Positions 1-40,456 of a stretch of DNA of 40,456 bases are shown here, piece by piece. This DNA is from a virus. Position 1 is the first letter of the stretch. Every line of letters begins with the position of its first letter. The stretch lies in IMG/VR virus record IMGVR_UViG_3300039191_000106, positions 1 to 40,456 of that record, one strand, 5' to 3'. Under the pieces are notes generated by a model. The model was given only the letters and a program-made list of their open reading frames with translations. It did not search any database and was not told the DNA's origin. Made by a program: the position numbers and the translations under genes.

Positions 1-652
1 GACGGGAGTGTGCTAGGGTTTGAAACTTTACTCCAATCAGACGTATTATAAATAGTTACATAAGGACTGCTAGAATGTGCAACTGCCATTAAACTACCGC
101 CATTATTAAAGGCGACTCCGAAACCAGTAAGAGTCGGGAGTGTGCTAGGGTTTGAAACTTTGCTCCAATCAGATGTGTTATAAATAGTTACATAAGGACT
201 GCTAGAATGTGCAACTGCCATTAAACTACCGTCACTATTAAAGGCTACGCCGTTGCCAGTACCAGACGGGAGTGTGCTAGGGTTTGAAACTTTGCTCCAA
301 TCAGATGTGTTATAAATAGTTACATAAGGACTGCTTATATGTGCAACTGCCATTAAACTACCGTCGTTATTAAACGCTACTCCGAGACCAATAAAGGACG
401 GGAGTGTGCTAGGGTTTGAAACTTTGCTCCAATCAGATGTGTTATAAATCATTACATAAGGACTGCTTGCAAGTGCGACAGCCATTAAACTGCCGTCGTT
501 ATTAAAAGCTACGCCGTAACCCGCACCAGACGGGAGTGTGCTAGGGTTTGAAACTTTGCTCCAATCAGATGTGTTATAAATAGTTACATAAGGACTGCTA
601 GAATGTGCAACTGCCATAGTCGTTGATAACGCAGTTCCCCCCGCTGCTGAGC
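1..652 (-). repeat. Tandem 132-bp repeats (propeller blades), left part
   Basis: The motif GTGTGCTAGGG starts at 8, 140, 272, 404 and 536, exactly 132 bp apart. It continues at the other end of the window at 40182, 40314 and 40446, the last being the same copy as 8. Each unit encodes 44 residues. Positions 1-99 are identical to 40307-40405. This is coding repetition, not a CRISPR array. Confidence 0.95.
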
Positions 653-680
653 TAAAATGTGCGACTGGAAATGTAAGCAT
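1..680 (-). CDS. Seven-bladed beta-propeller (WD40/YVTN-like) tail protein, N-terminal part; continues at 40144-40456
   Basis: The frame starts at ATG 680 and runs off the window at position 1. Joined to 40456-40144, with the 18-bp terminal overlap counted once, it gives a 324-residue protein. After about 21 N-terminal residues it consists of seven 44-residue repeats, each with the core YNTSDWSKVSNPSTLP followed by GxGVAFNxDGSLMAVAH. Seven repeats of this size fit a closed seven-bladed propeller; that fold is inferred from period and motif, not proven. A strong AGGAGG at 685-690 precedes the ATG and overlaps the stop of the upstream gene, so translation is probably coupled. The position among fibre genes suggests a virion surface or receptor/glycan-binding role. 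The blades are nearly identical at DNA level, indicating recent amplification. Confidence 0.8.
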   Translation of the reverse strand, partial: MLTFPVAHFSSAAGGTALSTTMAVAHSSSPYVTIYNTSDWSKVSNPSTLPSGAGYGVAFNNDGSLMAVALASSPYVMIYNTSDWSKVSNPSTLPSFIGLGVAFNNDGSLMAVAHISSPYVTIYNTSDWSKVSNPSTLPSGTGNGVAFNSDGSLMAVAHSSSPYVTIYNTSDWSKVSNPSTLPTLTGFGVAFNNGGSLMAVAHSSSPYVTIYNTSDWSKVSNPSTLP

Positions 681-688
681 ATAGCCTC

Positions 689-1174
689 CTAGCTAAAATT
701 AAGTTGTGAAACGCCGTACAAATTCGTACCATCGCAAACAAAGGTTAAAATATCGACTGCGTTATTGGTAGCCGTCACCGTTGGAGCTGTACCGCCAGGG
801 AACTTAAACACCGCATTAAAAGCCAGTGTCTTAGGTGCTGACGCATGTTGCTTCCAAGTAAAAATATAAGTTGCACCGTCTACAAGGTTGGTTGGGGCTG
901 CAATAGTAGTATTCTCGGTTGCTGTGTGACTAACTACTTGATTAGACTCCGCATCCCATGCGATGCTATTAGAAGAGCTTGTCAAGGTAGTTGCATTGAA
1001 GTTTTGAGTTTTTGTGTACTCTCCCGCAACACTTCTTATCAAGGTAAGCAAGTTCGCAAGTGTGCCCTTCTCGGAGAGGGGTGTTCCTCCGGGGTCTCTC
1101 ACAAACTCCAACAAGTCAGTATTGACCAACGCACCAGTAAGTGCGTCTAAGTCGGTTATCTTCTTGTCAGCCAT
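689..1174 (-). CDS. Phage tail/fibre structural protein, 161 aa
   Basis: The opening MADKKITDLDALTG is typical of small phage tail-fibre or head-fibre proteins whose N-terminal segment attaches to the virion. The rest is Thr/Ala/Asn-rich and predicted to be beta-structured, with no enzymatic motif. It lies in the fibre gene block, between the 140-aa tail protein and the propeller gene, and its stop overlaps the propeller ribosome binding site. Assignment as a structural protein is from composition, N-terminal motif and context; the exact role is unknown. Confidence 0.65.
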   Translation of the reverse strand: MADKKITDLDALTGALVNTDLLEFVRDPGGTPLSEKGTLANLLTLIRSVAGEYTKTQNFNATTLTSSSNSIAWDAESNQVVSHTATENTTIAAPTNLVDGATYIFTWKQHASAPKTLAFNAVFKFPGGTAPTVTATNNAVDILTFVCDGTNLYGVSQLNFS

Positions 1175-1254: not shown

Positions 1255-1677
1255 TTATAATTCTATTATTGCGGATGCAGTTGTTAATATCGGTGTTACA
1301 CCACTTGAAACAACTATGTTCGGTGTAACAGTTCCCGAATACTTCATATCATCGCTAACCCCACTGCCTACGCTAAAATGTGTAATTGTTTCGCTACCGC
1401 CCGTTGCGGCTGCGAACTCAATATTAGCTGCTGGCGAAACACTGTTGTCTGTTACTGTCCAACCACCTGAAGTCCTTGCAATAGTTTTACGAACATAACT
1501 TGTGTAAGTCGCCTCGTTAGTTGACATATCGCCAGCTTCGCCGGGATCAGATGTGTGCAACGCAACAGTTATTGTTGTGGCGGGTGATGTTGTATCGTTT
1601 TCCGCTATGTCAGCTATTGCAATAGCATTAAATATTAAAAGAAGAAGTGAGTTCTCGAAAGCGTTTGATTTAGACAT
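1255..1677 (-). CDS. Phage tail-fibre-like protein, 140 aa
   Basis: The protein contains LHTSDPGEAGDMSTNEATY, then YVRKTIARTSGGWTV and a region around ITHFSVG. This order matches a widespread family of small phage structural proteins encoded among tail and fibre genes, of unknown precise function. It follows the Gly-rich fibre gene, separated from it by a non-coding or decayed stretch of about 180 bp. I am confident that it is a phage structural gene and less sure of its location in the virion. Confidence 0.7.
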   Translation of the reverse strand: MSKSNAFENSLLLLIFNAIAIADIAENDTTSPATTITVALHTSDPGEAGDMSTNEATYTSYVRKTIARTSGGWTVTDNSVSPAANIEFAAATGGSETITHFSVGSGVSDDMKYSGTVTPNIVVSSGVTPILTTASAIIEL

Positions 1678-1736
1678 GATATTACCTTTTTTTAAATTGC
1701 ATATTATAGTAACAAAAAATTATTAATTAGTAAATT

Positions 1737-1855
1737 CTATTTTATAGCTAAGTATTGTATCGTTCCGGTGGACATTGAGCCAGTTAAGCTTGTTACTGTT
1801 AATCTAATTCTATTTATGTTGGTCTTTCTAGTGCTGCACGAAGTATCACATAGCC
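1737..1855 (-). pseudogene. Possible remnant of a tail-fibre C-terminal domain
   Basis: Directly after the stop of the Gly-rich fibre gene, the -1 frame stays open to a TAG at 1737-1739 and reads as a protein-like tail ending NINRIRLTVTSLTGS and about 14 more residues. It has no plausible start of its own. To my eye it resembles the end of beta-sandwich fibre domains in other phages. The upstream gene ends in GEVRVFVW, a usual terminus of the Gly-rich domain, so this is more likely a leftover of a replaced module than a frameshift extension. The interpretation is tentative. Confidence 0.3.
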
Positions 1856-4069
1856 TTACCAAACAAATACTCTTACTTCACCCCGACCACCAGCACCACC
1901 AGCACCACCTACACCAGCACCACCGCCACCAGAAGGTGCTGAACCAGCTCCACCAGCTCCACCGTTTGCCCCTCCATTTCCTCCAAAAGTAGATACGCCA
2001 CCAGCTAAGGGATTTGCACCGCCACCAGTACCACCACCGCCACCATAAACAGAGCCACCGCCAGCAGATGCCAGAGATGAACTAGTTAACCCGCCACCAC
2101 TACCACCGCCCAGCATAACACCAGAAAAGCCTACTTCAGCAGATCCTGCCTTTGCACCTGTACCTTCCATATATTCAACACCATCAGACATATCATTAAA
2201 TTGAGATCCAGCAGCTGATGTAGATTGAACCCCGCCACCAGCAACGCCAGCAATAATAGCATTCGGAGCTGTGTAATTACCTCCGACACCTCCGTATGAC
2301 GTTACATGTGATCCGACAGAAGAAATTCCTCCATTTCCACCCTTTGCACCAGTTGAACCGCCTGCTCCACCAGCCCCGACTGTTACCGCTTCGGTTGATC
2401 CCAAAGATGACAAGAGAACCGTCATTTCTTTATATGACCCACCACCACCGCCAGTTGCGCCAAACCCAGTAGAACCAGAACCGCCACCGCCACCGCCCCA
2501 CACCTGAATCTTTGCAAATGTTCCGCTGGCTGGCTTTGTCCACGTTCCAGATGCTGTAAAAGTTTGGGAATTATTTTGCACTCCCAAAGTGTCCCGCATT
2601 GCTGATGCACTAGAATCATCTAGCAAGGTTCTTGCAAAGCTTGTAAGAGTTGTTAATGCACCAGCGATAGCACTTGTAAAATAAAACAATTTATCAGATG
2701 CTGGTGTCAATCCATCTTGCGCCCTTATATTACTTATGCCTTGTTCTGACATATTAAGAACATTTTCAGCATAGTAATTAAATAGTGTTGTTGCTTCAAA
2801 GTCACTTGAACCATCGTTAAAAATATAACCGATTGCCCTCCAACTGTTATACGGATGATACCAGCCTTTTAATGTACCTCGTAGGTCATAAGGTTTTTTA
2901 TCACTTAAAACCGCTTTTCCTGTTTCTGTAATGTAAGCAAAATACGTTGTAGACGCTCCTTCAGATACACCAGTTTCAAGATCTGTTGCAATATCCCATT
3001 CTAATTTACTGCTTCTAGAATTTACTGCAATTCCGTAAACACTTATATCAAAGTCAAAATCCTTTGCGGCTAAAACGGTTGTGCTTATGTATTTTGACGA
3101 TATAGGATTATCAGAATTGAACACTTTATTTAGATCAAAAGATCGTGAAGCTATACAATTTGTTTCATCAACAACTGCTATTCCTATAGGTATTCTATTT
3201 ACTTCCGCAAATGCCGAGCCTCCATAACGCTTCCACTTTCCAGCCACCAGATCGAACCAATAATCACCAGTTGCAGGGGAAGAAGGTTCTGTTACTGAAT
3301 AAATAGGCGAAGTGTATGTTACATCTACTGTAAGGCTATCATCTTCAACAAACACCCAGCCACCACTCATAATTGTCAGAGTATCATTATTTGTTAGTGC
3401 TACACGTTCAATAGGCGCACCAGAGCTATTTAAGAAATATCCCCTATATACATTTGATAGCTCGGTTGCTGATTCAATGTAAGCAAGTAAATATTCAGTT
3501 GAGGTTTTGAAAACTGCATATTGTCCAACACGATTAGATATTTCAGTTCCAACAGTGTCAATTGTAATTATAGTACCATCTTCACCCTGCCATTTACTAG
3601 ATTCTTGCCCTGTAAGAGCTGTATCATCAACTAATGCTGTATTATTTGAAGATGGTGCAACTGTAAGGCTTGTTTCTGCAAGGTCTGCTGCAATTGTGGT
3701 GCTTGTTCCATCTATATTTAAAACTAAGCTTGTCGAAGCTCCTTCAACTGTTACGGTTGCTGCTGATCCGGCAGCACGTAAGAAATCAGGTCTTATGCTG
3801 GTGCTTACTGTTTGTCCAGATAAAATAGCATTTTCTGCGCCAGTTAAATTTCCTAAATCCACTGTAGAACCGCCTATAACTAGGCTAGTTGCGTATAAAG
3901 CTCCCCACGGCGTAACGGCACTACCTATATCTTGACCAGAAGCCACAACACCGGTTGAGGGATTGCGCCCGACTACGGCACCGATTAATGCACTTCTGAA
4001 ATCATTATACCAACTTTCATCTTGGACATCACCGGAACTTTTAACCGCTGAAATATTTGTTGTTCCCAT
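1856..4069 (-). CDS. Large tail fibre with C-terminal glycine-rich domain (receptor-binding candidate), 737 aa
   Basis: The N-terminal roughly 100 residues (VVGRNPSTGVVASGQDIGSA) resemble fibre attachment regions. A long beta-rich shaft follows, and from about residue 500 the FTASGTWTKPASG motif begins a domain dense in GGGG runs ending in GEVRVFVW. This Gly-rich domain is widespread in phage fibres, and in some it carries loops that bind the host receptor. The gene starts 5 bases after the upstream tail gene (TAGTATAATG arrangement), so it is translated with the tail tip genes. Its role as main host-recognition fibre is inferred from domain and position. Confidence 0.8.
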   Translation of the reverse strand: MGTTNISAVKSSGDVQDESWYNDFRSALIGAVVGRNPSTGVVASGQDIGSAVTPWGALYATSLVIGGSTVDLGNLTGAENAILSGQTVSTSIRPDFLRAAGSAATVTVEGASTSLVLNIDGTSTTIAADLAETSLTVAPSSNNTALVDDTALTGQESSKWQGEDGTIITIDTVGTEISNRVGQYAVFKTSTEYLLAYIESATELSNVYRGYFLNSSGAPIERVALTNNDTLTIMSGGWVFVEDDSLTVDVTYTSPIYSVTEPSSPATGDYWFDLVAGKWKRYGGSAFAEVNRIPIGIAVVDETNCIASRSFDLNKVFNSDNPISSKYISTTVLAAKDFDFDISVYGIAVNSRSSKLEWDIATDLETGVSEGASTTYFAYITETGKAVLSDKKPYDLRGTLKGWYHPYNSWRAIGYIFNDGSSDFEATTLFNYYAENVLNMSEQGISNIRAQDGLTPASDKLFYFTSAIAGALTTLTSFARTLLDDSSASAMRDTLGVQNNSQTFTASGTWTKPASGTFAKIQVWGGGGGGSGSTGFGATGGGGGSYKEMTVLLSSLGSTEAVTVGAGGAGGSTGAKGGNGGISSVGSHVTSYGGVGGNYTAPNAIIAGVAGGGVQSTSAAGSQFNDMSDGVEYMEGTGAKAGSAEVGFSGVMLGGGSGGGLTSSSLASAGGGSVYGGGGGTGGGANPLAGGVSTFGGNGGANGGAGGAGSAPSGGGGAGVGGAGGAGGRGEVRVFVW

Positions 4070-6069: not shown

Positions 6070-8640
6070 TTATCCCCTATCCGTCCCTAGTGTTGTATTT
6101 TCAAGTTGTCTAGCCGTGATAAATTCAGCAGCATCATCAGTAAAGCTTATTTCAATTCTTGCGACAGATCCACCACCTTCAGATTCATCTTCTTTTACAA
6201 ATCCCCTTTGTCGTGCCGTTCCTTCAACCACCTGTTCAAAGTTCTTGCGAGGTGCTACTATTTCACCATCTGCAAGCAATGCCCTGTGTCTATCTCCTGA
6301 CCTTGATGCGCCAGCACCGCCAACCATACCCCCATCTTCTAATCCAGATATTGTAGTGCCAGCTATAACTGCCCCCCTTAGAATCCCCGCTGTCAGCTCT
6401 GCGGCTTGAAATGGGGGGGCGGCAATACCAAGCTGTCTTCCTATCAGTGCCATAGCAGCCTGCGTGTTCATTATATTACTAGCAAATGCAAGCCCCTGCT
6501 GCATCAGAAAGAACGCTTTTCCCGCGGCGCTGCCTTCTTTGAATAACGCCCGCCCTGATGCGATTGCAGAGGTCAACGTGTCTTGCAAAGTTTTCTTCTT
6601 AAAGTCTAGAATCTCGGTTGCAGTCGCTAGTTCGCCTTTTTGGATTGCAGCCAAATGAGTAAAGGTTTCTTTTTGCGTATCTGTGAAATCTTTTGTTAGT
6701 AGCTTCTTTTTATCTGCTATTTGCTTTTTAAGGGTTAATATTTCTTTTATATTACCCTTCTTTTCCATAGCAGCTAAAAGAGATATTTCCAACTCACGCA
6801 AAGCTAAAACCGCATTAGATGCAGAAATATTTTGTTCTTGCAATCTTGCTTTAGTTTCTCCTTCTGCTATAATTTTATTGCCATCTGCAACAAGCTTTCT
6901 ATCCGCTTCTTCTTGTGCTGCTATGGTTCTTGCATCCAAAGCAGCAGCTGCTTCTTCTTCTAATTTTCCACGCATTTTTTCAGCATCTATAGCATCATAA
7001 ATTTCTTCAAAACTTTGCTTAACGCTTTTATTATCTTGTATGAGTGTTTCGTTTGCCTCCATTAATAAAGCAATTGATCCTTTTATTTGCGAAACTTTTG
7101 TTCCGTATGCGCTGGCTGGTAAAGCCTCGAACATTGCAAGCTGAACTTTGCGTAGTGTTATTATTAACTCATTAAGCCCAACCTTCATTTTATTAACATT
7201 TACAGTAAAATTTTGCCCTGCGATTGTAAAAAGCGTTTGAATGCCGATTAATAACGCCCTAAAAGATTCTAAATTTGTTGTTATCCCCGCTATTGCTATT
7301 CCAATTCCTATAAAAGCAGTTCCAACCACACCTAGTGGAACAGCCAAACCTCCTATTACCAAAGCGACGCCCGCAAAGCCAACTTTTAAAGCAAGAACGC
7401 CTATTCCTAAAGTTGCTATCGCAGCGGTTATGCCAAAAAAAGCAGTTGCGCCTGCTAAAACTTTCGCAATAAGCCTTTTTGTGTTTTCGTTTAATCCTAC
7501 GAATTCTTTGAGCAAGTCTTTAGTGGCAACTGTTGCATCCTTAACGGCTGGGGTAAAGAAGCCGCCTATTTGAGTTGAAATAACCCCAATAGTATTTGAT
7601 AACTTCTTTGTTTCGTTATCTAAAGTTTTAGATTGCGCGGCAAACTCTTTTTCTAATGCCGTTGCGTTTTGCACTTCTGTGCCTGCAATTCTTAACGCCC
7701 GCCCTAATTCATCACTGTTTTTTGCCAAAACCGGCAATACATTTAATATTTCTGTGCCTTCTAACCCGAAATCAGCAAGGGTTGCGGCTACACCTTTTGT
7801 GGTTTCTCCGGCTCGTGACAGCCCTTCTACAAACTTTTGGAACACAACAGCAGCATCATCTTGAAAAGTCTTTTTTAAAGCGTCCCCTGTTAATCCTGTG
7901 ATCTTTTGAAGTTGTTTAAAAGATTCGCCACCACCTCGAATAGCTTCATCTATCGCCTGAAAGGATCTGCCAACAGCCGAGCCACCTCCTTCAGCTTCTA
8001 TCCCTACTGACTTCAATGCGGCACCAAAAGCCGCAGCCTCAGCAGAAGAAACCCCGAATTGAGTCGTAGCCCTTGCAACTCGTGTAGTAACGGCGGCTAT
8101 TTCCCGCTCCGAAGCCGCAAAGCTGTTCCCCAGTGCGACTATTACAGATGCAAACTTATCTATATCACCTGTTCCTTCCCTAGTGATATTCAATATTCTT
8201 GTTAAAGTTGTTGCGGCTTCCTCACCTGAAAGATCTGAAGCGGTTCCCAGTTTCGCTATTGTTTCAGTAAATTTTATAAGGTTATCTTTTCCTTTAACCC
8301 CTAATTGACCCGCTGCTTGAGCTATTGCCAATAGTTCTTTTGTTGCAAAAGGAAGCCGTGTAGATAACTTCTGAATATCCTTACCAAAATCAGTAAGGCT
8401 TTTTCCTGTTAAATCCGCTGTTTTACCTACGCCAATAAGCCCTGTTTCATAAATAGCAAATGACTTAACGGTTAAGCCTATCGTTGTTGCGAGTGCTGCA
8501 AAGGCTATTGTTGAGCCTTTAGCAACACTTTTTAAGGTATCATCAAGGTTCTTTGTTTGCCCTTTTATACGATCAAATTCGTCTCTTAATGCCTTAGAGT
8601 TCCCTTCAATCTTAATAACAACTGATCTATCATCTGCCAT
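6070..8640 (-). CDS. Tail tape measure protein, 856 aa
   Basis: This is the largest gene of the window and lies in the canonical place after the tail chaperones. The N-terminal half, with IAQAAGQLGVKG and GVSSAEAAAFGAALKSVG, matches the TP901-type tape measure domain. A long hydrophobic stretch lies at about residues 393-455 and an Ala/Lys/Glu-rich helical region at about 530-720. Tape measure proteins set tail length and are threaded into the host at injection; the hydrophobic stretch suits membrane passage. The ATG at 8640 overlaps the end of the frameshifted chaperone frame (8630). The length suggests a siphovirus tail of ordinary size. Confidence 0.92.
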   Translation of the reverse strand: MADDRSVVIKIEGNSKALRDEFDRIKGQTKNLDDTLKSVAKGSTIAFAALATTIGLTVKSFAIYETGLIGVGKTADLTGKSLTDFGKDIQKLSTRLPFATKELLAIAQAAGQLGVKGKDNLIKFTETIAKLGTASDLSGEEAATTLTRILNITREGTGDIDKFASVIVALGNSFAASEREIAAVTTRVARATTQFGVSSAEAAAFGAALKSVGIEAEGGGSAVGRSFQAIDEAIRGGGESFKQLQKITGLTGDALKKTFQDDAAVVFQKFVEGLSRAGETTKGVAATLADFGLEGTEILNVLPVLAKNSDELGRALRIAGTEVQNATALEKEFAAQSKTLDNETKKLSNTIGVISTQIGGFFTPAVKDATVATKDLLKEFVGLNENTKRLIAKVLAGATAFFGITAAIATLGIGVLALKVGFAGVALVIGGLAVPLGVVGTAFIGIGIAIAGITTNLESFRALLIGIQTLFTIAGQNFTVNVNKMKVGLNELIITLRKVQLAMFEALPASAYGTKVSQIKGSIALLMEANETLIQDNKSVKQSFEEIYDAIDAEKMRGKLEEEAAAALDARTIAAQEEADRKLVADGNKIIAEGETKARLQEQNISASNAVLALRELEISLLAAMEKKGNIKEILTLKKQIADKKKLLTKDFTDTQKETFTHLAAIQKGELATATEILDFKKKTLQDTLTSAIASGRALFKEGSAAGKAFFLMQQGLAFASNIMNTQAAMALIGRQLGIAAPPFQAAELTAGILRGAVIAGTTISGLEDGGMVGGAGASRSGDRHRALLADGEIVAPRKNFEQVVEGTARQRGFVKEDESEGGGSVARIEISFTDDAAEFITARQLENTTLGTDRG

Positions 8641-21493: not shown

Positions 21494-21512
21494 CTCTATC
21501 CTTTGTTGTTAA
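21494..21512 (-). repeat. Gene-junction element, copy at the end of the C5 methyltransferase gene
   Basis: Matches 18 of 19 bases of the element at 23552-23570 and 23966-23984 (TTAACAACATAGGATAGAG on the minus strand). Here it contains the methyltransferase stop codon TAG. Confidence 0.7.
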
Positions 21513-22701
21513 TTCTTTTTCCTAACCACGCCATTACAGGTACAGCCATGCTATTCCCTAACGCTGCGTATCGTTTGCCGTCTGTAGTTTTTTCATGTAG
21601 TTTTGTAAAACCATCAGGGAAGCCTTGCAACCTTTCGCACTCTAAAGGGGTTAATCTTCTCACCACGTTGGAATAATTAACACTCATCGAACGCGACTTA
21701 GTTAATGTTGGCACGCCCTCAATCGTGTATGCAATATCAGACTGAACACCAGCACTTTCAGAAAAACCCGCTGCTACTGCGTGGCTATGCCCTTTTGTTA
21801 TTGTAGGGCATGGGTCGCCAACTTCGCCAATACCAGAACCCATACGAGGGTTTAAATCGTCACTAGGTCGGCCCATCATTGTCATAGTGTTAATAGGTAT
21901 TGCTGTAACTGCGTGTCTATCCGTTTTTGTTAACGTGAAAGATAAATCCTCACTAACGCCTGTTCCATTTCCTCCGTTCTCTGGCTTTCTGTCTATTGTG
22001 TTCCCAGCTAATCCGTAGGTTATAAAAGTTTCGCTTCCGCCACTTAATACCCCCCCACTTTTTTTCATAGTTCCTGACAACTCATCTGAGCGGTATCCTC
22101 CAAAGATACTTTCAGCAAAGGAGGTAATATTTTTCCCCTTTTTTCGCTCCGGCGTAATATTCCCTGACAAGCTCTCTGGCTCAAATAATACTTTTGCAGG
22201 ACTTCGCCAGTCTCCAAGACATCCGACAACGAACACACGCCGCCTTCTTTGTGGCACTCCGAAATATTGAGCGTCAAGAACCCTGTAGGCGAACCCATAC
22301 CCGAGTTCCCCCAACCCTCCGAGGAAACTTCCAAAAGTGCGTCCTTTGTCATGTGACAAGACCCCCGGAACATTTTCCCAAACCACCCACTTGGGACGTT
22401 TTCTTTTAAGTAGCTGTAAAAAGGCAAGTGTGAGATTCCCTCTATCATCTTCAAATCCTTTCCGAAGTCCTGCAACGCTAAAGGCTTGGCAGGGAGTTCC
22501 CCCCACGAGAAGGTCGATTGTTCCATAGTCTTTTGCTCCTATTGTTGTGAAGTCACCATGATTTGGTGTGTTGGGGTATTTTTTTAATAATAACTCACTT
22601 GCAAATTTATCAATGTCTGCATAAGCCACAAACTCCCAACCTAGGGGCTTCCAAGCTACTGTCGCAGCCTCAATCCCACTACAAACTGACATAACCCTCA
22701 T
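21496..22701 (-). CDS. DNA (cytosine-5) methyltransferase, 401 aa
   Basis: All key motifs are present: motif I VCSGIEAATVAW at residues 6-17, the catalytic PCQ at 70-72 (Cys71), ENV at 109-111, QRRRR at 151-155 and the C-terminal RLTPLECERLQGFPDGF and YAALGNSMAVPV. The region of about 190-330 would be the target recognition domain. The enzyme methylates C5 of cytosine in a defined site, probably protecting phage DNA from restriction. It starts within the HNH gene stop (ATGA overlap) and ends in a repeated junction element. A second, orphan copy of its first 15 codons lies upstream of the HNH gene. Confidence 0.93.
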   Translation of the reverse strand: MRVMSVCSGIEAATVAWKPLGWEFVAYADIDKFASELLLKKYPNTPNHGDFTTIGAKDYGTIDLLVGGTPCQAFSVAGLRKGFEDDRGNLTLAFLQLLKRKRPKWVVWENVPGVLSHDKGRTFGSFLGGLGELGYGFAYRVLDAQYFGVPQRRRRVFVVGCLGDWRSPAKVLFEPESLSGNITPERKKGKNITSFAESIFGGYRSDELSGTMKKSGGVLSGGSETFITYGLAGNTIDRKPENGGNGTGVSEDLSFTLTKTDRHAVTAIPINTMTMMGRPSDDLNPRMGSGIGEVGDPCPTITKGHSHAVAAGFSESAGVQSDIAYTIEGVPTLTKSRSMSVNYSNVVRRLTPLECERLQGFPDGFTKLHEKTTDGKRYAALGNSMAVPVMAWLGKRINNKG

Positions 22702-30237: not shown

Positions 30238-31044
30238 ATGGCGATTAAAAAAGAGGTAATAATAGGCGATTGTAGGTTGATACTAGGTGATGCTTTAGAG
30301 GTTATGCCAACTCTTGATAAAGTTAATATGGTTTTAGTCGACCCCCCGTATGGTACAACAGCCTGTAAGTGGGATGCTATTCTACCACTCAAGCAAATGT
30401 GGGTGCAGCTTAAAGAGATAACAGAGCCAGCAACAGCTATTGTTATGATGGCAAGTCAACCCTTTACCACTCAGCTGATAGCTAGTAATTATGATATGTT
30501 TAAGTATTGTTGGGTGTGGGAAAAATCACAAACAACAGGTTTTTTAAATGCGTGGAAAATGCCACTTAAGGCGGTAGAGGATATTTGTATATTTTACGAA
30601 CGCCCTGCAGTATATAATCCAATTTTACGAGAAAAAGACAAGCATAATATTAGACCAGTAGCAGCACGCCCCAAATTAAGTAACTGTTATGGAAAGCACA
30701 AATTAAATGTTCATAAATGCCCCCCAGATAAAACCATGCCTAGTAATTTAATAAAATTTAACAATGCGCAAAATACAGTTCACCCAACGCAGAAACCAGT
30801 TGCACTAATGGAATACCTAATAAACACCTACACAAACGCTGGTGACACAGTCCTTGATTTTACAATGGGAAGCGGAACAACCCTAGTGGCATGTGCAAAG
30901 ATGGGGCGTAAAGGCATAGGAATAGAACTTGATGAGGATTACTTCAATATCGCTTGTAAACGTGTTGCTGACGCTTACAAACAGCCTGATATGCTAATTG
31001 AACAACCAAAAGCTAAACTAGAACAAGATACAATGGAACTTTAA
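30238..31044 (+). CDS. DNA methyltransferase (N4-cytosine/N6-adenine), 268 aa
   Basis: Catalytic DPPYGTT at residues 35-41 (motif IV) precedes HPTQKPVALMEYLI and DFTMGSGTTLVAC (motif I, around residue 208), so motif order is that of beta-class methyltransferases (PF01555 type). It methylates exocyclic amino groups in a specific sequence. It lies among recombination genes, and its likely job is protection of phage DNA. It has no linked restriction enzyme, so it is a solitary enzyme. Confidence 0.92.
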   Translation: MAIKKEVIIGDCRLILGDALEVMPTLDKVNMVLVDPPYGTTACKWDAILPLKQMWVQLKEITEPATAIVMMASQPFTTQLIASNYDMFKYCWVWEKSQTTGFLNAWKMPLKAVEDICIFYERPAVYNPILREKDKHNIRPVAARPKLSNCYGKHKLNVHKCPPDKTMPSNLIKFNNAQNTVHPTQKPVALMEYLINTYTNAGDTVLDFTMGSGTTLVACAKMGRKGIGIELDEDYFNIACKRVADAYKQPDMLIEQPKAKLEQDTMEL

Positions 31045-38729: not shown

Positions 38730-39695
38730 TTATTTTGTTGATACTATCAGTTCTAATTCTTTTACTATGCTAATGTTTAAACTGTTATTTAGCAAGGTTA
38801 TTTGCAACTGGAGATCAAGCGTATCTAAAGTTATGATGCCTGTTGAGTCACTTATTCCTATTACTGTTGACAATCCTGTAGAGCTTGCCAAGGATTTAAA
38901 CTTAGATCTTCCAACCGCTGCGACTGTTGATAACCCAACCGCTGCGGCTGTTGCAGCGAATTTGCTTGAACCTATTCCACTTACCGCCGATGCACCAGTT
39001 GAAGCACCAACCGACTTGATAGCAGCCGTACCAACTCCGCTTGACGTGCTTGATCCTGATGAACTTGCTACACCTAAGAATTTTGACACCCCTATTGCGG
39101 AAGTTGTTGAAGTTCCGTTACTTGCTGCAACAGCATGGAAGTCAGCACCCCCAACACCTAAAGTTGTAGAGCTTCCTGCTGCGTTTGCAACCGATCCACT
39201 AACAAATGAAACGCCTGTGACCGTGGAAGTGCCGCTCGTGACCGCCACGGCTTTAAACGCACTTGCTCCAACTGCAAGAGCTTCTGACGTGCCTACTGAG
39301 CTTGCTACCGCTTCCGTTCCTGCTGTTGTGGAATCACCTGTTGCTGCTGCGGAGCTTTCCCCAGTTGACGATGCAATCGCTGCAAACTTACTAGCACCAG
39401 TAGCGGTTGAGGTTGATGTTCCTGTTGACGATGCGAGTGCTGCAAACTCGCTTGAACCTGTTGCGGCTGCGGAGCTTTCCCCAGTTGACGATGCAATCGC
39501 TGCAAACTTACTAGCACCAATAGCGGTTGAGGTTGATGTTCCTGTTGACGATGCGAGTGCTGCAAACTCGCTTGAACCTGTTGCCGAAGCTGTAGATGTA
39601 CCAGTGGCTGAGGCTACAGAGCTAGTGTATTCCACCACCCTGACATCACCAGATTCGGTTATCCTCCTGTCACCAGCTTCGGTTATTCGTGCCAT
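38730..39695 (-). CDS. Ser/Thr/Ala-repeat tail fibre protein, 321 aa
   Basis: Starts with MARITEAGDRRITESGDVR, a common fibre attachment sequence. I choose ATG 39695, with AAAGG 9 bases upstream; the longer frame uses a TTG. About residues 25-285 consist of ~20-residue units such as FAALASSTGTSTSTAIGASK, ending with a Leu-rich helix (LDLQLQITLLNNSLNIS). A 40-residue block is duplicated almost exactly. The function is probably a shaft or adhesin on the virion surface. Confidence 0.7.
   Translation of the reverse strand: MARITEAGDRRITESGDVRVVEYTSSVASATGTSTASATGSSEFAALASSTGTSTSTAIGASKFAAIASSTGESSAAATGSSEFAALASSTGTSTSTATGASKFAAIASSTGESSAAATGDSTTAGTEAVASSVGTSEALAVGASAFKAVAVTSGTSTVTGVSFVSGSVANAAGSSTTLGVGGADFHAVAASNGTSTTSAIGVSKFLGVASSSGSSTSSGVGTAAIKSVGASTGASAVSGIGSSKFAATAAAVGLSTVAAVGRSKFKSLASSTGLSTVIGISDSTGIITLDTLDLQLQITLLNNSLNISIVKELELIVSTK
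39346..39585 (-). repeat. Tandem 120-bp duplication in the repeat-rich fibre gene
   Basis: 39346-39465 and 39466-39585 are identical except at one base (39400 G versus 39520 A). Each encodes 40 residues, which are two 20-residue subunits. Recent duplication is evident. Confidence 0.9.
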
Positions 39696-39756
39696 CTTCA
39701 AATGCCTTTGTATCAGGTCTCGTTAAAAACTAAGTAAATTCGTGTTTCAATTGTTA

Positions 39757-40131
39757 TTACGCTTTTGGGTATTTTAGTTTAACAGCTTTTATATGGTCTT
39801 TGAATACCGAGGTTCCATTAGTTAAGTCGTGGTAAAACATGTCTAACTGCTCCTCCACAGAACCATACGCCGCCCGCCTGTTCTCATAAACCACGTTTAA
39901 AGCCTCTTCTGCAAGCTCCTTTTTGGTCTTGTCCCTAGACTCCCAAACTTGGGTATTATTCGTGTTTATCGAATAGCCAGCTACTACCTTGCCATCAGGA
40001 GCGGCAACCGTTTTAACCTTTGTCAATTCCGCTATCTCATCCTTTGGGTAATTTGCTGGGTATTTTGTGCCGTCCATTGCAGTATAAGACTGCTTGTCAT
40101 GCACAATTTCTTTATTCTGGTTTATATACAT
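39757..40131 (-). CDS. Fibre-associated protein with a conserved phage C-terminal domain, 124 aa
   Basis: The C-terminal part NRRAAYGSVEEQLDMFYHDL then FKDHIKAVKLKYPKA matches a widespread phage domain (RR.EY.s..dQLD.ly....g....w..hi..vk..yP). The family is found next to tail fibre genes and may have an assembly or chaperone role. The N-terminal part (YSINTNNTQVWESRDKTKKE) is variable. It lies 12 bases from the end of the propeller gene. Confidence 0.7.
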   Translation of the reverse strand: MYINQNKEIVHDKQSYTAMDGTKYPANYPKDEIAELTKVKTVAAPDGKVVAGYSINTNNTQVWESRDKTKKELAEEALNVVYENRRAAYGSVEEQLDMFYHDLTNGTSVFKDHIKAVKLKYPKA

Positions 40132-40143
40132 AATCCTCTCCTC

Positions 40144-40456
40144 TTAATTAAAAGCTACTCCGATACCAGTATTAGGCGGTAGTGTGCTAGGGTTTGAAAC
40201 TTTACTCCAATCAGACGTATTATAAATAGTTGCATAAGGACTACCCGAATGTGCGACTGCCATTAAACTGCCGTCACTATTAAAGGTTACTCCGAGACCA
40301 GTACCAGACGGGAGTGTGCTAGGGTTTGAAACTTTACTCCAATCAGACGTATTATAAATAGTTACATAAGGACTGCTAGAATGTGCAACTGCCATTAAAC
40401 TACCGTCACTATTAAAGGCTGCGTCGTTGCCAGTACCAGACGGGAGTGTGCTAGGG
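40144..40456 (-). CDS. Seven-bladed propeller tail protein, C-terminal part; continues at 1-680
   Basis: The open frame runs from the window end to TAA at 40144 and carries the last two full repeats and part of another. After merging the 18-bp overlap with position 1, total length is 975 bp, or 324 codons and stop. The last repeat lacks only its five terminal residues (NDGSL). The separate ATG at 40395 inside the frame is a repeat codon, not the gene start. Confidence 0.8.
   Translation of the reverse strand, partial: PSTLPSGTGNDAAFNSDGSLMAVAHSSSPYVTIYNTSDWSKVSNPSTLPSGTGLGVTFNSDGSLMAVAHSGSPYATIYNTSDWSKVSNPSTLPPNTGIGVAFN
40168..40456 (-). repeat. Tandem 132-bp propeller repeats, right part
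   Basis: The repeat marks at 40182, 40314 and 40446 are spaced exactly 132 bp and align with those at 8-536. 40307-40405 is identical to 1-99. Confidence 0.95.
40439..40456. repeat. 18-bp terminal overlap with positions 1-18
   Basis: GACGGGAGTGTGCTAGGG is present at both ends. Merging it keeps the reading frame (18 is a multiple of 3) and the exact 132-bp period, so the window is a circle of about 40,438 bp. An alternative is that the assembly broke in this repeat and circularity is artefactual. Confidence 0.75.

What the first reader, a model, noticed from the sequence alone, without database searches (positions are those of the whole stretch)
1..680. Phage propeller made of seven near-identical blades
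Seven 44-residue blades with almost the same DNA sequence make a closed beta-propeller on the likely virion surface. Such homogeneity implies recent amplification or continuous homogenisation by recombination, and a surface for multivalent glycan or receptor binding. Blade-to-blade differences cluster in the segment after TLP and around AVAH-x-SS, which could be the binding loops. I know no phage fibre of exactly this design, but I cannot search.
Basis: partly seen in the sequence, partly recalled or inferred. Interest (0 to 1): 0.7.

Follow-up and report, generated by a model that had tools for sequence, protein, structure and literature searches.

The report
Shuffled seven-blade propeller on phage tails
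A bacterial virus carries a ring-shaped, seven-bladed protein whose near-identical blades keep a fixed framework and vary at a few residues on one face; the same ring has been plugged into many different tail proteins of other phages, so it looks like an interchangeable, fast-changing binding head for recognising host cells.

Summary
The window is a tailed-phage record. One minus-strand gene, joined across the record's ends (680→1, 40456→40144), encodes 324 aa: a 21-aa leader and seven 44-aa blades (mean identity 88% DNA, 86% protein). AlphaFold2 of a relative with the same layout gives a closed 7-bladed propeller (pLDDT 96.5). About 150 viral loci encode relatives; 72 of 85 analysed arrays have exactly 7 blades, four have 14. 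In other phages the propeller is a cassette inside unrelated virion proteins (tail tubular proteins A and B, baseplate proteins), with clean empty sites in relatives. Array ends always lie on the bottom face; variation concentrates at four top-face positions per blade (pN/pS 1.57 against 0.28 elsewhere). Two phages 99.2% identical over 13 kb share blades 1-3 but differ in later blades at paralogue level: block replacement. A 99%-identical relative of the window phage carries an unrelated protein in place of the propeller module. Best reading: a modular host-recognition head diversified by blade recombination without a reverse transcriptase, convergent with fungal HET-D/E WD40 repeats. Binding and virion location are inferred; the window's count of seven rests on joining record ends.

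The parts
1..680 (-). 5' part of the propeller gene: ATG at 680, 21-aa leader, partial blade (617-531), four full 44-aa blades (530-399, 398-267, 266-135, 134-3)
40144..40456 (-). 3' part of the same gene: two full blades (about 2..1+40438-40309 and 40308-40177) and the closing A strand PNTGIGVAFN plus stop (40176-40144)
40439..40456 (.). 18-bp direct overlap with window 1-18 (GACGGGAGTGTGCTAGGG), lying inside the 132-bp repeat; the record end, not a biological end
   Evidence: L095 is contiguous across it
689..1174 (-). 161-aa protein directly upstream of the propeller gene; weak matches to C-termini of tail fibre proteins; similar domain upstream of the free-standing propeller in L059/L060
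   Evidence: phrog_3904, phrog_9017 tail fiber; 33% identity, 2e-7
39757..40131 (-). 124-aa protein directly downstream of the propeller gene, phrog_9114/1787, function unknown
   Evidence: no Pfam match
38730..39701 (-). protein with 20-aa (60-nt) Ala/Ser/Thr repeats; its repeat region is the downstream border of the swapped module and is shared with L095
39470..40456 (-). downstream half of the swapped module (absent from the 99%-identical phage L095)
1..1218 (-). upstream half of the swapped module; identity to L095 resumes at 1219

Best explanation
The gene encodes a free-standing WD40/YVTN-like 7-bladed beta-propeller that serves as the exchangeable host-recognition head of a siphovirus tail. 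Mechanism: (1) seven 44-aa blades close into one ring, the last strand A coming from the C-terminus and strands B-D of the same blade from the N-terminus; (2) the ring is attached to the virion by its bottom face (A-B and C-D loops), leaving the top face outward; (3) four residues per blade in the D-A and B-C loops of the top face (about 28 per ring) form a multivalent binding surface under diversifying selection; (4) the DNA-similar framework lets blades recombine in register, so blocks of blades or whole arrays are replaced while the count stays at seven because only a closed ring folds; (5) the whole cassette moves between genes and phages and can be swapped for an unrelated adhesin. Shown by computation: repeats, fold of a relative, family-wide count of seven, insertion into several virion proteins with empty sites, bottom-face attachment, pN/pS excess at top-face loops in the family, block replacement, module swap in a near-identical phage. 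Inferred: presence on the virion of this phage, receptor binding, recombination as the cause of block replacement, exactly seven blades in this gene.
For: Repeats and in-frame join. Fold: model of the L018 array (same permutation, 70% identical in the best segment), pLDDT 96.5, seven blades; Z 40.1 to 7bid, 39.1 to 1l0q, 35.1 to 2ymu. Family: 150 relatives in IMG/VR; 72 of 85 non-edge arrays have 7 blades and 4 have 14. Host proteins: TTPA phrog_394 and TTPB phrog_376 in L005/L019; baseplate wedge, Baseplate_J, collar, virion structural. Empty sites: TTPA flanks joined align in one piece to pelagiphage TTPA; two TTPB sites, loops that hold other domains in HTVC010P. Termini: 55 arrays end at the C-D loop, 32 at the A-B loop, none at a top-face loop. 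Selection: positions chosen in 37 diverged arrays, tested in 24 homogeneous ones: pN/pS 1.57 against 0.28; 16 of 24 arrays have pN above pS. Homogenisation: nearest blade lies in the same array for 331 of 512 and in the same genome for 45 more. Block replacement: L038/L032 99.2% identical over 13.1 kb, one difference in the first 536 nt of the propeller, then blades 4-6 at 0.81-0.88, the paralogue level. Module swap: L095.
Against: No experiment; no virion proteomics. In the window array alone, pN does not exceed pS at the four loop positions (pS 0.489, pN 0.356; few sites). The pN/pS method is simple pairwise counting, with a bootstrap lower bound of 1.13 and non-independent blade pairs. The window's own full protein could not be modelled because it spans the record ends. 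No second phage sharing the window's propeller at high identity was found, so shuffling was not seen in this very gene. The model of propeller plus TTPA was poor (pLDDT 66.5). Replacement of blades 4-7 could in part be misassembly of repeats in metagenomes.
Confidence: 0.7

Rival explanations
1. The propeller is a structural or decoration domain (stability or adhesion to surfaces, particles or mucus) with no role in receptor choice; top-face variation is relaxed constraint.
For: The L007/L022 array lies beside a head-decoration match (phrog_20658); propellers occur in many kinds of virion protein, not only at tail tips.
Against: pN/pS of 1.57 at four top-face positions, chosen in one set of arrays and tested in another, is more than relaxation would give; residues enriched at position 4 are Tyr, Arg, Asn, Phe, Gln, Trp; the module is swapped for a different protein in an otherwise 99%-identical phage.
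Confidence: 0.15
2. The blades are near-identical simply because of a recent one-off amplification from a single blade, as described for many bacterial and eukaryotic propellers, with no continuing exchange.
For: Independent recent amplification is common in beta-propellers (PMC9218822); most blades are closest to blades of their own array.
Against: Framework synonymous differences of about 24% in the window array show age; L038/L032/L044 share flanks at 96-99% but differ by blade blocks at paralogue level, which a one-off amplification does not explain.
Confidence: 0.12
3. Variation is written by a diversity-generating retroelement acting on each blade.
For: In the window, positions 2 and 5 of the 44-aa unit vary in the first two codon bases with a fixed third base; one of 20 records carries an RVT_1 reverse transcriptase.
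Against: No reverse transcriptase in the window record or in 18 others; third bases do vary at the loop positions across the family; differences are block-wise.
Confidence: 0.03
4. The array is a metagenome assembly artefact.
For: The record ends lie inside the repeat; some records have odd counts such as 3-4 blades (L043).
Against: Blades are not identical copies, the frame is kept, and 72 of 85 analysed arrays, from many samples, have exactly seven; blades also occur in GenBank phage records, isolates among them.
Confidence: 0.03

Closest known systems
WRAP, highly repetitive WD40 propellers of Npun_R6612 (PDB 2YMU; PMC6805158, PMC9218822)
   Same: 7-bladed ring of near-identical blades; best solved relative by sequence profile (E 1.1e-42) and among the best by structure
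   Different: Cellular cyanobacterial protein, 14 blades in one chain, no synonymous differences reported; no insertion into virion proteins. PMC9218822 and PMC6805158 hold no mention of phages, though PMC9218822 mentions some viral members
Fungal HET-D/HET-E/HNWD WD40 allorecognition repeats of Podospora anserina (PMC1805685, PMC2873952)
   Same: Concerted evolution by exchange of repeats; four codons per repeat under positive selection, two in the d-a loop and two in the b-c turn, all on the top face, the same places as here
   Different: Eukaryotic intracellular NLR-type receptors, variable repeat number, fungal hypermutation discussed; here viral, seven blades held fixed, carried on virion proteins
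Receptor-binding propellers of phages: phi11 Gp45 (5 blades), PRD1 P2 (5 blades), PhiKZ gp131C (7 blades) (PMC4901313)
   Same: Beta-propellers at the host-facing end of a phage, proposed receptor binding
   Different: Not described there as repetitive arrays, inserted cassettes or shuffled blades; no sequence test of kinship was made here
T7/SU10 nozzle protein (tail tubular protein B type; PMC9509320)
   Same: A tail-tip protein that contains a propeller and accepts inserted domains
   Different: That propeller is part of the nozzle itself; here extra WD40-like propellers are inserted into such a protein in L019
phrog_19311 (PHROGs, unknown function)
   Same: The window protein and most relatives match its propeller region (8.8e-33 for the window part)
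   Different: Family has no assigned function; the 1023-position profile includes other domains
Diversity-generating retroelement targets
   Same: Fixed scaffold with a few hypervariable surface positions on phage tail proteins (own knowledge)
   Different: No reverse transcriptase in 19 of 20 records

Membership tests
Beta-propeller fold, 7 blades | Closed ring of four-stranded blades | tested here: met
   Model of the L018 relative with the same layout: pLDDT 96.5, pTM 0.93; Z 40.1, rmsd 1.8 over 286 residues to a 7-bladed design. The window's own full protein was not modelled.
WD40 superfamily | Profile kinship with solved WD40 propellers | tested here: met
   2ymu E 1.1e-42, PkwA 5yzv E 1e-8
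WD40 superfamily | Pfam WD40 (PF00400) over its curated cut-off in the window protein | tested here: not met
   17.2 bits against a cut-off of 27; a relative, L005/L019 TTPB, exceeds it (43 bits). PF12894 (ANAPC4_WD40) does exceed its cut-off in the window (25.7 against 22.9). Hence 'WD40/YVTN-like', not canonical WD40.
Highly repetitive propellers (blades above 60% identity, as in PMC9218822) | Pairwise blade identity above 60% | tested here: met
   86% aa mean
Phage receptor-binding protein | Part of the virion | not testable with these tools
   Indirect only: tail-gene position and relatives in tail proteins
Phage receptor-binding protein | Binds a host surface structure | not testable with these tools
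Diversity-generating retroelement target | Reverse transcriptase in the same genome | tested here: not met
   No PF00078 match in the window record or 18 of 19 relatives' records; records may be incomplete
HET-D/E-type repeat diversification (mechanism, not homology) | Positive selection at top-face d-a and b-c loop codons | tested here: met
   pN/pS 1.57 at positions 2, 4, 20, 21 in 24 arrays, against 0.28 elsewhere; not shown in the window array alone
HET-D/E-type repeat diversification (mechanism, not homology) | Exchange of repeats within and between arrays | tested here: inconclusive
   Genome-wise grouping and block replacement fit exchange; no direct observation, and metagenome assembly is a caveat

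The most novel reading that the evidence does not exclude
Phages own a reverse-transcriptase-free diversification system: a portable seven-blade ring, plugged into permissive loops of tail and baseplate proteins, whose DNA-similar blades are continually reshuffled by recombination so that only the outward face changes. It would be the viral counterpart of the fungal HET-D/E repertoire.
Probability: 0.5. Interest if true: 0.85.

Novelty: new variant of a known kind. Interest (0 to 1): 0.7.

Why it matters
How phages change host range quickly is a central question. Diversity-generating retroelements and tail-fibre swaps are known answers; a recombining repeat ring under diversifying selection would be another, present in about 150 viral loci that carry little annotation. 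It also gives a natural, testable case of a symmetric repeat protein used like an antibody scaffold, and suggests that two very different systems (fungal allorecognition, phage tails) put their variable residues in the same two loops of the same fold.

Tried and rejected
Silent cassettes: L084 and L061 seemed to carry broken extra arrays, but the breaks are in-frame TAG or TGA codons, which fit stop-codon reassignment rather than a donor store. DGR: no reverse transcriptase in 19 of 20 records. Bacterial origin: the genome-contig scan gave only three remote matches at 26-36% and the plasmid collection one tail fibre record. A search for a propeller-bearing close relative of the window phage found L095 (module swapped), L096 (ends before it) and L097 (no blade match in the stretch held). 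TTPA plus propeller model: alignments mixing arrays and short TTPA fragments misaligned; with TTPA homologues only, the model was poor (pLDDT 66.5) and is not used. Literature: searches for WD40 or propeller cassettes inserted in phage tail proteins found nothing describing them; subscription papers are not covered.

Full report
OBSERVATION. The window is a whole virus record of 40,456 bp. It is a tailed phage, probably a siphovirus, with a Mu-type portal, terminase and Mu-like protease and a tape-measure protein at 6070-8640. Tandem repeats of 132 bp lie at both ends, 1-617 and 40147-40456. They belong to one minus-strand gene cut by the record's ends. The ends share 18 bp; with this overlap removed the gene is 975 bp, in frame, 324 aa: leader MLTFPVAHFSSAAGGTALSTT, strands B-D of one blade, six full 44-aa blades, then PNTGIGVAFN, which supplies strand A of the first blade. 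A second phage, L095, 99.1-99.8% identical to the window, is continuous from window 1219 to 39469, so the ends are truly adjacent. Because the record breaks inside the repeat, the count of seven is an inference for this gene.

FOLD. The full window protein could not be handed to the predictor because it spans the ends. L018 (the same record as L004) has the same circular permutation and is 70% identical in its best segment. Its model, with 56 arrays as alignment, has pLDDT 96.5 and seven blades. Solved structures closest to it are 7-bladed WRAP-T designs (Z 40.1), an archaeal surface-layer YVTN propeller (Z 39.1) and natural WRAP 2YMU (Z 35.1); by sequence profile the best is 2YMU, E 1.1e-42. 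The window itself falls short of the Pfam WD40 cut-off, so I call it WD40/YVTN-like.

FAMILY. One profile scan of IMG/VR gave 150 relatives, of which 78 loci were kept. Counting blades by span over period in 85 non-edge arrays gives 72 with 7, four with 14, and nine others; several of those nine are divergent or possibly collapsed assemblies. Relatives occur in GenBank phages. In 84,980 cellular genomes only three remote matches were found, so the close family appears viral.

CASSETTE. In other phages the same ring sits inside unrelated virion proteins. In L019 (the same record as L005) one array splits tail tubular protein A (phrog_394) and two split tail tubular protein B (phrog_376). With the array removed, TTPA aligns in one piece with pelagiphage TTPA, and an eight-sequence alignment places the gap cleanly. 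The two TTPB loops are empty in HTVC028P and hold other domains in HTVC010P, so they are permissive sites. L017 has two arrays in one 1,667-aa tail protein. Other host proteins match baseplate wedge, Baseplate_J, collar, LamG and virion structural families. Array ends are at the C-D loop (55) or the A-B loop (32), never at a top-face loop: the ring is always tethered by its bottom face. Lineages are not independent, so no p-value is given.

VARIATION. Per-blade variability was ranked in 37 diverged arrays; the top four HMM positions are 2, 4, 20 and 21. In 24 homogeneous arrays these have pN/pS 1.57 (bootstrap 1.13-2.27) against 0.28 for the rest and hold 36% of amino-acid differences in 9% of positions; 16 of 24 arrays have pN above pS. 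In the L018 model they fall in the D-A loop or start of strand A and in the B-C turn (strands against the sequence), the top face in WD40 terms. In the window array the four positions hold 41% of differences, but pN is not above pS there.

EXCHANGE. Nearest-blade analysis: 331 of 512 in the same array, 45 in another array of the same genome, 136 in another genome, many of them near-identical relatives. L038, L032 and L044 share a 595-aa protein with 96-97% identical N-terminal DNA. L038 and L032 are 99.2% identical over 13.1 kb; in the propeller the first 536 nt have one difference, then blades 4-6 drop to 0.81-0.88, no higher than between paralogous blades, and the C-terminal tail is shared again. 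L038 and L044 are 96.8% identical over 8.5 kb but their blades are at paralogue level throughout. This fits replacement of blade blocks in register. Misassembly of repeats remains a caveat. No reverse transcriptase was found in 19 of 20 records.

MODULE SWAP. L095 lacks the window's 161-aa protein, propeller and 124-aa protein; 1,826 bp there encode a 126-aa protein and an unrelated N-terminal part fused to the same 20-aa-repeat region, neither with a Pfam or PHROG match. So an otherwise near-identical phage lives without the propeller, as expected of an exchangeable recognition module. L059/L060 carry a domain like the window's 161-aa protein just upstream of their free-standing propeller.

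MECHANISM AND COMPARISON. Best explanation: a seven-blade ring anchored by its bottom face to a tail structure, reading the host surface with a variable top face, renewed by blade recombination and moved between genes as a unit. Binding, virion location and recombination are inferred. The nearest parallel in mechanism is Podospora HET-D/E, where two codons in the d-a loop and two in the b-c turn of each repeat are under positive selection and repeats evolve in concert (PMC1805685; instability shown directly in PMC2873952); spacing within the repeat is alike (7, 9, 25, 27 there; 2, 4, 20, 21 here), though the registers were not aligned. Phage propellers proposed as receptor binders exist (phi11, PRD1, PhiKZ; PMC4901313), and repetitive propellers are well known (PMC9218822, PMC6805158). 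I found no paper describing a repetitive, inserted, blade-shuffled propeller in phages; only open-licence papers were searched.

Noticed in passing
window 39336-39605 (gene 38730-39701, minus): 20-aa (60-nt) repeats, two 120-bp units 98% identical, forming the downstream border of the swapped module.
   Followed up: partly
L084 7975-9084 and 9712-10677: Propeller genes interrupted by in-frame TAG codons, suggesting TAG reassignment in this phage.
   Followed up: partly
L061 1685-2809: Propeller gene with in-frame TGA at two places where the family has F or W, suggesting TGA read as Trp.
   Followed up: partly
L065 (record G020), 106412-106984 of the record: The only reverse transcriptase among 20 records checked, in a 168-kb phage with three propeller ORFs; whether it is a DGR was not examined.
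   Followed up: no
L120 (HTVC010P) tail tubular protein B, 1501-4065: Other domains inserted at the same two loops that hold propellers in L019: general insertion hot-spots.
   Followed up: partly
window 21496-22701 and 30238-31044: A C-5 cytosine methylase (PF00145) and an N6/N4 methylase (PF01555) in the same phage.
   Followed up: no
L039 5957-8068: Two tandem genes with the same N-terminus, one with about 5 blades and one with 7.
   Followed up: no
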